Below, in pieces: positions 1-2,112 of a stretch of DNA of 20,384 nt; position 1 is the stretch's first letter; every line of letters starts with the position of its first letter. The DNA comes from a virus: the IMG/VR virus record IMGVR_UViG_3300042934_000481, positions 1 through 20,384 of that record; one strand, 5' to 3'. The position numbers and the translations under genes were made by a program. The notes under the pieces were generated by a model that was not told the origin of the DNA, made no database searches, and saw only the letters and a list, made by a program, of their open reading frames with translations.

Positions 1-16
1 GGAAGCGGAAATGCAC

Positions 17-49
17 AAAGGCCTGCGTCGCTTTCGCTCGCAGGCCTTT
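17..49 (-). terminator. Rho-independent-type terminator of tRNA-Leu
   Basis: A perfect 11-bp inverted repeat (17-27 with 39-49) surrounds an 11-nt loop. The outer A/T pairs leave a short T run on the minus strand, just downstream of the tRNA-Leu 3' end. It is most likely the native terminator of the host tRNA gene, so the bases to its left are probably chromosome rather than phage. The T tract is short, so function as a terminator is inferred from structure and position. Confidence 0.7.
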
Positions 50-58
50 GTTGAAAGA

Positions 59-117
59 TGGTGCCCGAAGCCGGAATCGAACCGGCACGCCCTTACGAGC
101 GGGGGATTTTAAGTCCC
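59..117 (-). tRNA. tRNA-Leu(TAA), 3' fragment only
   Basis: Read on the minus strand, the sequence has a CTTAAAA anticodon loop (anticodon TAA), a long class II variable arm, a T arm containing GGTTCGATTCC, the acceptor strand TCGGGCA and an encoded CCA at 59-61. The variable arm and anticodon identify leucine. Upstream of the anticodon stem the D arm (the GG...GTAGAC type sequence) and the 5' acceptor strand GCCCGA are absent, and the fifth anticodon-stem pair is already mismatched near 117. The gene is therefore truncated and cannot make a tRNA. This is the fragment displaced when a phage recombines into a tRNA 3' end; the complete gene should lie at the other, integrase-side end of the prophage. 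Confidence 0.8.
59..117. other. Probable prophage attachment site (attL/attR core in tRNA-Leu)
   Basis: The match to a canonical tRNA-Leu stops abruptly at about 117 and phage-type genes begin from 389, so the junction of host and phage DNA falls here. Tyrosine-recombinase phages commonly use tRNA 3' ends as attB and carry a copy of that segment in attP. The exact core cannot be fixed without the other end of the element. Which side is called attL or attR depends on the unseen integrase. Confidence 0.65.
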
Positions 118-388: not shown

Positions 389-598
389 ATGCCAAACTCT
401 GATCTGCTCCCTTCCCTACTCTCCAAAATCAACGAAAACCAGCTCGCCCTTGAGGCTGCCATCATGGAGCTAACCCTATGGGTCGAGCAGCGCGGATCCG
501 CCGATGTCGCCGAAAACGTCCGAAGCTCTCTGGCCGCGCTCGATCGAAATGAAGAATTCATCAAAATGACCTTGGCTGTTTTGATGACGCCCGACTGA
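389..598 (+). CDS. Small hypothetical protein (69 aa)
   Basis: I do not recognise this family. The start is well supported: GGAGG lies at 378-382, six bases before the ATG at 389. The product is a small soluble protein, mostly helical in appearance, with no signal peptide or membrane span. It lies in the plus-strand unit at the prophage edge, upstream of the LexA box, so it is probably not in the same LexA-controlled transcript as the next two genes unless read-through occurs. The longer minus-strand frame across this region (241-660) lacks a good ribosome site and is regarded as a shadow. Confidence 0.7.
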   Translation: MPNSDLLPSLLSKINENQLALEAAIMELTLWVEQRGSADVAENVRSSLAALDRNEEFIKMTLAVLMTPD

Positions 599-641: not shown

Positions 642-657
642 CTGTACATGCATACAG
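642..657. promoter_or_regulatory. LexA binding site (SOS box)
   Basis: The 16-mer CTGTACATGCATACAG fits the gammaproteobacterial LexA pattern CTGT-N8-ACAG with both half-sites exact and an AT-leaning, partly palindromic centre. It sits 23 bp before the ATG at 681 of the following gene, a position where bound LexA would block RNA polymerase. I could not identify convincing -35/-10 elements around it. The downstream SRAP gene belongs to a family tied to the SOS response, which makes the site more credible. Confidence 0.8.
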
Positions 658-680
658 CACTAGTACAGCGAACCCGTTTC

Positions 681-1406
681 ATGAATTTCAACCAAGCAAA
701 ATCCCTTCGCCTTGATCGCTGGCGAGCCACTCTCGATGATCACGACTTCCGTATGCAAAGCCCCGAAGCGCACCGGGCGACCTTGCGAGAAATGGCGATG
801 GATTTGCTGAGTGAAGGCTTGATCGACGAGCTCGAGCAGTTCGACATGAGCGAAATGGCCGACGCTGCTTATTGGCACGCAGTGGAAGAACTGCAGAGCT
901 TGCCTGGCCAGTACCGGGGTGCATCGAGCTATGACGTGGTGCACATCGACAACGGGGAGTTGCTTGGCACCATCAGTCGGTCAATATTCAACTTCGCAAA
1001 GAGTGAGCCGCGCGGCGCTTACTCTGGCTATGACGGAAAGGTGTACTCCGAACCCGACGGAGTTTGGTTGTCGCTTGGAATCTCTCGTAGGATCGGAAAG
1101 ATTGCCGGGTTGGCGATGGAGATGAACGGCTGCCGGTACCAGCTGATTGAAACCGATCGAATGATTGATGGAGTTACCCACCACCCTCTCGCGGATGCTG
1201 ACGTCTACCGGGCGCTCGTCGATGCGGCGCAGGTCGCTCAAGAGGAGCGGGATCTTCGGGCGTTTGAAAAGCTACGCCCTCACATCGAGTCGGCGGCGTT
1301 CTGCATTTGCTCTGAGTGCCTTGATCGCTTCGGTGCCAGGGACGACTGCACGACATGCTCCGGAAAAGGTTTTGTGACGAAGCCAGCGCTGGCGGGTCTA
1401 CGTTGA
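681..1406 (+). CDS. Hypothetical protein with C-terminal zinc-ribbon-like cysteines (241 aa)
   Basis: I do not recognise the family. The N-terminal about 200 residues show no motif I can name. The C-terminus carries CxxC (C210, C213) and, after nine residues, another CxxC (C223, C226) followed by SGKG, which resembles a DnaJ-like or rubredoxin-like zinc knuckle; C208 is a possible extra ligand. An in-frame ATG at 648 lies inside the LexA box and would fall upstream of most plausible transcription starts, so I chose ATG 681, although its ribosome site is weak. The gene is followed after 25 bp by the SRAP gene, and both are probably transcribed from the LexA-controlled promoter. A DNA-repair or SOS-linked role is inferred from context only. 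Confidence 0.75.
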   Translation: MNFNQAKSLRLDRWRATLDDHDFRMQSPEAHRATLREMAMDLLSEGLIDELEQFDMSEMADAAYWHAVEELQSLPGQYRGASSYDVVHIDNGELLGTISRSIFNFAKSEPRGAYSGYDGKVYSEPDGVWLSLGISRRIGKIAGLAMEMNGCRYQLIETDRMIDGVTHHPLADADVYRALVDAAQVAQEERDLRAFEKLRPHIESAAFCICSECLDRFGARDDCTTCSGKGFVTKPALAGLR

Positions 1407-1431
1407 ATCAGATCCCGCCGAGGGCATGGCA

Positions 1432-2112
1432 ATGTGCGGACGACTCTCCCAATACAGCGGCATTCACGATTTCGTGGCGGCGCTCAGCATGCCGAACGCG
1501 CTCATTAACTCGACCGGCGAGCAGCCTTTCGAGCGGTACAACGCCGCGCCGACTGCTCAGCTCGCCCTCTTCCACCAGGAAGGCCAGTTCCTGCACGCCG
1601 ACATGGTTCGCTGGGGATGGCGCCCGCACTGGGCGAAAGACCGCGCTGCGCCGATCAATGCTCGTGTCGAGAAAGTCGCCCACGGCCCGTTCTTCCGCGC
1701 GATCTGGCCGCACCGGGCAATCATCGCGATCAACAACTGGTTCGAGTGGGTGGACGAAGGCGGGCCGAAGAAGCAGCCCTACCTAATCAGGCACCGCGAC
1801 CACTCCCCAATCCTCTGCGCCGCGATCGGCCAGTACCCCAACGAGGAGCACGGCCCCGGCGAGCACGACGGCTTTGTGATCATCACCGCCGACAGCGCCG
1901 GCGGCATGGTCGACATCCACGACCGCCGCCCGGTCGCTCTCCCGCCAGAGCTCGCGCGGGAATGGCTGGACCCGGCTACGCCCAAAGAGCGCGCTGAACA
2001 GATGGTGCTGCATGAGGGCGAACCATCCGAGGCTTTCGAGTGGTTCAAGGTTGACCGCGCCGTGGGCAACGTGGGCAATCAGGGGCCGGAACTGATTCAG
2101 CCGGTCGGATGA
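1432..2112 (+). CDS. SOS response-associated peptidase family protein (SRAP/YedK/HMCES type)
   Basis: Family members form a covalent thiazolidine link to abasic sites in single-stranded DNA through an N-terminal cysteine, shielding the lesion. The hallmark residues are all present: MCGR at the N-terminus (Cys2), PINAR (Asn76), NWFEW (Glu105) and DIHDRRPV (His163), at spacings that match E. coli YedK. An in-frame ATG lies 6 bp upstream at 1426, but the chemistry needs Cys next to the initiator Met, and GAGGG at 1420-1424 is well placed for ATG 1432, so that start is preferred. Length (226 aa) is normal for the family. The usual AET after NAR is altered here to VEK. It is the last gene of the LexA-controlled unit and converges on the next gene with a 2-bp gap. 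Confidence 0.92.
   Translation: MCGRLSQYSGIHDFVAALSMPNALINSTGEQPFERYNAAPTAQLALFHQEGQFLHADMVRWGWRPHWAKDRAAPINARVEKVAHGPFFRAIWPHRAIIAINNWFEWVDEGGPKKQPYLIRHRDHSPILCAAIGQYPNEEHGPGEHDGFVIITADSAGGMVDIHDRRPVALPPELAREWLDPATPKERAEQMVLHEGEPSEAFEWFKVDRAVGNVGNQGPELIQPVG

What the first reader, a model, noticed from the sequence alone, without database searches (positions are those of the whole stretch)
642..2112. LexA-controlled operon of an unknown zinc-ribbon-like protein and a SRAP gene at the prophage edge
A near-ideal SOS box precedes a two-gene unit that faces the prophage late genes and abuts the attachment site. SRAP proteins link covalently to abasic sites in single-stranded DNA. The partner gene (681-1406) is unrecognised and ends in two CxxC pairs. 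Such a unit could help the lysogen or replicating phage survive the same DNA damage that induces the prophage. Pairing of this unknown protein with SRAP under LexA may be a recurring, undescribed module.
Basis: partly seen in the sequence, partly recalled or inferred. Interest (0 to 1): 0.6.

Follow-up and report, generated by a model that had tools for sequence, protein, structure and literature searches.

The report
SOS-box prophage cassette with SRAP partner
Pseudomonas prophages repeatedly carry, next to their attachment site, a pair of genes behind a LexA (SOS) switch, one encoding a DNA-lesion-capping SRAP enzyme and the other an uncharacterised partner protein, so the prophage probably adds its own damage-response gadget to the cell's alarm system.

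Summary
An SOS box (642-657, CTGTACATGCATACAG) lies 39 nt upstream of a 241-aa gene (681-1406), followed 25 nt later by a SRAP gene (start corrected to 1432). The box is present at -37 to -41 in 41 of 41 relatives (chance about 0.006 per 60 nt), although synonymous sites are near saturation. SRAP follows in 36 of 41. Of the 70 closest SRAP loci with enough upstream sequence, 68 have a LexA-type box before a partner gene: 31 are this protein, 37 an unrelated coiled-coil protein. Remote homologues of the partner sit between a box and SRAP in phages F116, Presto and Fyn8. Eight of eight host chromosomal SRAP genes lack a box. The four Cys are invariant, so a zinc ribbon is likely; no known fold or function was found for the rest. 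SRAP has all the YedK catalytic residues. Most likely the unit is a LexA-repressed cassette that caps abasic sites during SOS, with the partner as an accessory; partner function is inferred. SRAP in SOS operons and prophages was already known; this cassette was not found described. An antirepressor role is less likely: 15 of 18 related prophages carry an S24-type repressor.

The parts
1..117 (-). host DNA and 3' part of tRNA-Leu(TAA): prophage attachment-site edge
   Evidence: matches tRNA-Leu(TAA) loci in 8 of 8 Pseudomonas genomes, homology ending at 115-117; in G007 a 30-bp repeat of 87-116 lies next to the P241 unit
389..598 (+). 69-aa conserved phage protein (phrog_12397) between the att site and the SOS box
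   Evidence: E 1.9e-36; found in many related loci; variable cargo is inserted after it in relatives
642..657 (+). LexA (SOS) box CTGTACATGCATACAG, extended ATTACTGTACATGCATACAG
   Evidence: conserved in 41 of 41 relatives
681..1406 (+). P241: 241-aa protein, N-terminal helical part, middle beta domain, C-terminal zinc ribbon CxxC-9-CxxCxGxG
   Evidence: phrog_19595 E 2e-91; alignment A1; model pLDDT 81; dN/dS 0.07-0.33
1420..1424 (+). likely ribosome binding site GAGGG of the SRAP gene
   Evidence: read from the sequence: 7 nt before ATG 1432
1432..2112 (+). SRAP (YedK/HMCES-type) gene, 226 aa, catalytic C2, N76, E105, H163
   Evidence: PF02586; aligned to YedK 6kcq over the whole length; residue roles from PMC9436759

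Best explanation
This is a LexA-repressed two-gene operon carried by the prophage. When host DNA is damaged, RecA-driven LexA cleavage frees its promoter at once, independently of the phage repressor. The lysogen (or the newly induced phage) then makes P241 and SRAP. SRAP forms a thiazolidine cross-link through Cys2 to abasic sites in single-stranded DNA, shielding them from strand breakage and error-prone bypass at forks. P241 most likely acts as an accessory that binds SRAP or nucleic acid and directs or limits that capping, a role filled by a coiled-coil protein in sister cassettes. Shown here by sequence: box, operon layout, conservation, catalytic residues, recurrence. Inferred: LexA binding, SOS induction, AP-site capping by this SRAP, and the accessory role of P241.
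For: Box at a fixed place in 41 of 41 P241 loci, against about 0.006 expected per 60 nt, while P241 dS to the 75%-identity group is 1.6-2.3. 68 of 70 eligible SRAP loci have a box before the partner gene. The same arrangement occurs in F116 and Presto, and in Fyn8 with a degenerate box. Identical or near-identical boxes precede umuD-like and yebG-like genes in Pseudomonas hosts. Eight of eight host chromosomal SRAP genes have no box within 900 nt, so LexA control is a feature of the phage cassette. YedK catalytic residues are all present. P241 is under purifying selection with four invariant Cys. In L028 and L031 a different MCGG-type SRAP-like gene occupies the SRAP slot behind P241.
Against: No expression or binding data. 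P241 occurs without SRAP in Meadow, LPPA36, L010 and L029, and SRAP occurs with another partner in 37 loci, so a physical P241-SRAP interaction is not shown. The SRAP frame is broken in 7 of 36 P241 loci, so it is dispensable. In 22 of 41 relatives the box has a degenerate right half (CCAG or TCAG), which may weaken LexA binding. Hosts already have their own SRAP.
Confidence: 0.55

Rival explanations
1. Two independent accessory genes (morons) share one SOS promoter. SRAP handles abasic sites; P241 does something unrelated, such as regulation or counter-defence, and the pairing is only modular shuffling of the att-proximal cargo slot.
For: Partner class switches on the SRAP tree (6 changes by parsimony, 2 forced by well-supported branches). 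P241 with its own LexA box but no SRAP occurs in Meadow and LPPA36. The slot upstream of the box carries mixed cargo such as AbiTii, DUF4238 and a UDG-family protein.
Against: P241-SRAP adjacency in 36 of 41 loci and in the remote F116/Presto/Fyn8 cassettes; replacement by a divergent SRAP-like gene at the same place in L028 and L031.
Confidence: 0.3
2. The unit is the prophage's induction switch: P241 or SRAP is a LexA-controlled antirepressor or sensor that inactivates the phage repressor, as in the Gifsy phages or 186 Tum.
For: LexA-controlled phage antirepressors outside the immunity region are known (PMC3121763); Aravind et al. proposed phage SRAP as a damage sensor and lysis switch (PMC3765255).
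Against: 15 of 18 related prophage contigs encode an S24-type repressor, the kind usually cleaved through RecA. SRAP keeps the AP-site chemistry residues. The frequent loss of SRAP (7 of 36) and the exchange of partner do not fit an essential switch. RecA-dependent cleavage of these repressors was not tested.
Confidence: 0.1

Closest known systems
YedK / HMCES SRAP family (PF02586)
   Same: Whole-length homology and all four catalytic residues.
   Different: Phage-type subfamily in a two-gene cassette behind a LexA box; the hosts' own chromosomal SRAP has no box nearby.
SOS-linked SRAP operons of Aravind et al. 2013 (PMC3765255)
   Same: SRAP under SOS context; SRAP reported in temperate phages; Zn-ribbon-like partners reported next to SRAP and Ku.
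   Different: Those operons hold UmuCD, ImuAB-DnaE2, DinB or Ku; this cassette has none of these and carries P241 or a coiled-coil partner. Whether P241 is one of their Zn-ribbon domains was not tested.
LexA-controlled antirepressor operons of Gifsy, 186 and N15 phages (PMC3121763)
   Same: Prophage genes outside the immunity region placed directly under host LexA.
   Different: No antirepressor found; related prophages have S24-type repressors; the second gene is a DNA-lesion-capping enzyme.
phrog_19595 and phrog_8717 (unknown function)
   Same: P241 and the Meadow/LPPA36 proteins belong to phrog_19595; F116p69 to phrog_8717, which is a remote relative (E 1.9e-8).
   Different: The F116-type proteins lack the zinc ribbon; neither PHROG has a function assigned.

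Membership tests
SRAP (PF02586, YedK-like) | Pfam match above the curated cut-off over the full domain | tested here: met
   159 bits against a cut-off of 27.1, positions 1-214 of 214
SRAP (PF02586, YedK-like) | Catalytic Cys2 (N-terminal after Met removal), Asn75, Glu105, His160 | tested here: met
   C2, N76, E105, H163 by alignment to YedK, if translation starts at 1432
SRAP (PF02586, YedK-like) | Covalent cross-link to abasic sites in ssDNA | not testable with these tools
   needs purified protein
LexA (SOS) regulon | CTGT-N8-ACAG box close to the start codon, conserved in relatives | tested here: met
   642-657 in the window; box core in 41 of 41 relatives, strict form in 19
LexA (SOS) regulon | LexA binding and induction by DNA damage | not testable with these tools
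   indirect only: the same box types precede umuD-like and yebG-like host genes
phrog_19595 | Full-length profile match | tested here: met
   E 2.2e-91, residues 5-240
Zinc ribbon (DnaJ-like CxxCxGxG) | Four conserved Cys in two CxxC pairs | tested here: met
   invariant in 36 sequences
Zinc ribbon (DnaJ-like CxxCxGxG) | Sequence or fold match to a solved zinc-ribbon structure | tested here: inconclusive
   DnaJ 1exk only at E 1.3-5.3; low-confidence region in the models
LexA-controlled phage antirepressor (Gifsy/Tum type) | Cognate repressor is non-cleavable (not S24 type) | tested here: inconclusive
   S24-type domain found in 15 of 18 related prophage records, which speaks against it; the window's own repressor lies outside the window and cleavage was not tested
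LexA-controlled phage antirepressor (Gifsy/Tum type) | Binds and inactivates the prophage repressor | not testable with these tools
   needs an experiment

The most novel reading that the evidence does not exclude
P241 is the founder of a new family of dedicated SRAP cofactors (recruiter or release factor for SRAP-DNA cross-links), exchangeable with a coiled-coil protein, and temperate phages use this SOS-triggered cassette to protect their own replicating DNA from abasic-site damage, including sites made by glycosylase-type phage defences such as Brig1.
Probability: 0.15. Interest if true: 0.75.

Novelty: new variant of a known kind. Interest (0 to 1): 0.48.

Why it matters
What SRAP does for temperate phages has been a guess since 2013. 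A compact, conserved, LexA-boxed cassette with two interchangeable partners, present in the classical transducing phage F116, makes the question testable: does SRAP need a partner, does the lysogen gain damage tolerance, or does the phage gain yield. It also shows that the LexA link belongs to the phage cassette and not to the host's own SRAP gene.

Tried and rejected
Solved-structure searches with profiles of the whole P241 and of residues 80-241 gave nothing significant. Fold comparison of the whole model and of the part model gave only weak rows: ribosomal protein S20-like helical bundles for the N-terminus (Z up to 8.2), small beta-barrels such as Atu4866 and MliC for the middle domain (Z up to 5.4). 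These are not taken as relationships, and a known fold is not excluded. No PADLOC match for P241, SRAP or orf69. No P241 match in plasmids. A sigma-70 scan found no consensus promoter; the recA-like placement of the box between -35 and -10 in relatives is only a visual impression. A link to glycosylase defence was considered because L015 has a UDG-family gene upstream of the cassette, but it is a single case. The weak Q-antiterminator match of Meadow_21 (E 0.08) was not followed. L042 (27-residue match, no box) was set aside as not a real member. Window-wide relatives by taxon could not be drawn because the record is a virus contig.

Full report
What is there. The window is a 20.4-kb virus contig. 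Its left edge, positions 1-117, is host DNA carrying the 3' part of a tRNA-Leu(TAA): the same stretch is found beside intact tRNA-Leu(TAA) genes in eight of eight Pseudomonas genomes, and homology stops at 115-117. In one of them (G007) a 30-bp repeat of window 87-116 lies about 59 kb from the tRNA gene, next to a P241 unit, as expected for the two ends of one prophage. From the att edge inward come a 69-aa conserved phage gene (389-598, phrog_12397), an SOS box (642-657), the 241-aa gene P241 (681-1406), SRAP (1432-2112), and then, tail to tail, the lysis and tail genes on the other strand.

The box. CTGTACATGCATACAG is the only exact CTGTN8ACAG in the window (0.19 expected). In all 41 P241 loci (the window, L002-L041) a CTGT-N8-NCAG box starts 37-41 nt before the P241 ATG; elsewhere in the same loci the rate is about 0.006 per 60 nt and strand. 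The strict palindrome is present in 19 of 41; the others have CCAG (one TCAG) in the right half. Most positions of the extended box (A-TACTGT, T7, A10, CAG) are invariant, while P241 itself has diverged to dS 1.6-2.3 against the 75%-identity group. In the host genomes, CTGTACATACATACAG (the exact box of L002, L003, L006 and L009) lies 18 nt before a umuD-like gene, and CTGTATATAAATACAG 42-44 nt before yebG-like genes (the gene identities are read from the translated sequence). So these are sequences that Pseudomonas LexA very probably binds.

The second gene. SRAP matches PF02586 at E 1e-46 and aligns with YedK over its whole length; C2, N76, E105 and H163 correspond to YedK C2, N75, E105 and H160 (roles in PMC9436759). 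The mechanism needs an N-terminal Cys after Met removal, so the real start is ATG 1432, supported by a GAGGG at 1420-1424.

The first gene. P241 belongs to phrog_19595 (E 2e-91) and has no Pfam or NCBIfam family. In 36 relatives C210, C213, C223 and C226 are invariant, in a CxxC-9-CxxCxGxGF pattern like DnaJ-type zinc ribbons. dN/dS is 0.07-0.33. Models of the whole protein and of residues 80-241 (pLDDT 81-82) show an N-terminal helical part, a middle beta domain, two helices and the poorly predicted ribbon. No fold match was strong enough to use.

Recurrence. Same-type SRAP follows P241 in 36 of 41 loci. In 7 of these the SRAP frame is broken or truncated (L007, L011, L013, L015, L023, L038, L039). 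Two of the remaining five (L028, L031) carry a divergent MCGG-starting SRAP-like gene at the same place (PF02586 E 0.004-0.006, below the cut-off). Going the other way, of the 80 closest SRAP loci in IMG/VR 10 have too little upstream sequence; 68 of the other 70 have a LexA-type box directly before a partner gene. The partner is P241-type in 31 (a few on the same contigs as the first set) and an unrelated 106-127-aa coiled-coil protein in 37. The two exceptions, L084 and L100, look rearranged upstream. On the SRAP tree the partner class changes 6 times by parsimony, at least 2 forced by well-supported branches; the window's SRAP is 96% identical to one with a coiled-coil partner. This is modular exchange around SRAP.

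Wider phages. F116, Presto and Fyn8 have SRAP next to the integrase, preceded by a 171-aa protein that is a remote P241 homologue without the ribbon (F116p69 against phrog_19595 E 1.9e-8). F116 and Presto have CTGTATATTCATACAG upstream of it; Fyn8 has a degenerate form. PseuP_222 has box, coiled-coil-like gene and SRAP. Meadow and LPPA36 have a P241 homologue with the ribbon behind a box, but no SRAP. SRAP genes of TC7, PG1, PHB10, Stenotrophomonas S1, Smp131, SPBc2 and Gifsy-2 had no such box within 1.2 kb (the E. coli-type pattern would not detect the Bacillus LexA site). All eight P241-bearing Pseudomonas genomes also have a separate 207-aa chromosomal SRAP with no box within 900 nt. LexA control therefore goes with the Pseudomonas phage cassette.

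How it most likely works. Shown by sequence: the box, operon layout, conservation, catalytic residues and recurrence. From established knowledge: LexA represses such boxes and is cleaved on RecA filaments; SRAP caps abasic sites in ssDNA. Inferred: the cassette is switched on with the host SOS response, before or apart from lytic genes; SRAP caps abasic sites in host or phage DNA; P241 is an accessory. Fifteen of 18 related prophage records have an S24-type repressor, 30-40 kb from the cassette, so the prophages probably have their own RecA-responsive switch, which lowers the antirepressor reading. The serious rival is that P241 and SRAP are two separate morons sharing a promoter.

Known or new. 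Aravind et al. 2013 (PMC3765255) named SRAP from SOS operons, noted it in temperate phages, suggested a sensor role there, and mentioned Zn-ribbon-like partners near SRAP and Ku. Nine literature searches in the open-access library found no description of the LexA-box, P241 and SRAP cassette; subscription papers are not covered. I file it as a new variant of a known kind.

Noticed in passing
L008:351-3950, L015:2844-3950, L026:207-3850, L038:1053-3950 (between orf69 and the SOS box): In relatives the stretch between the 69-aa gene and the SOS box is a variable cargo slot: AbiTii (L026), DUF4238/PDLC03000 (L038), a UDG-superfamily protein (L015), a LysR regulator with a dehydrogenase (L008). In the window it is empty (44 nt).
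   Followed up: partly
L176:1054-1950: In Stenotrophomonas phage Smp131 a DUF4238 protein sits directly upstream of SRAP next to the integrase; a DUF4238 protein also lies in the L038 cargo slot.
   Followed up: no
L043:4703 and L044:4694: Meadow and LPPA36 have a second LexA-like box just downstream of the P241 homologue (in LPPA36 29 nt before the next gene), suggesting further SOS-controlled phage genes.
   Followed up: no
L173:1814-2341: Phage Gifsy-2 has an unannotated SRAP-like stretch covering about 79% of the query near its end, perhaps a broken gene.
   Followed up: no
L185:1501-1516, L186:1501-1516: Near-perfect LexA boxes precede uncharacterised 420-440-aa genes in Pseudomonas chromosomes (G004, G001).
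   Followed up: no
L028 and L031, downstream of P241: A divergent MCGG-starting SRAP-like protein (about 150 aa, HDRWP motif) replaces the usual SRAP.
   Followed up: partly
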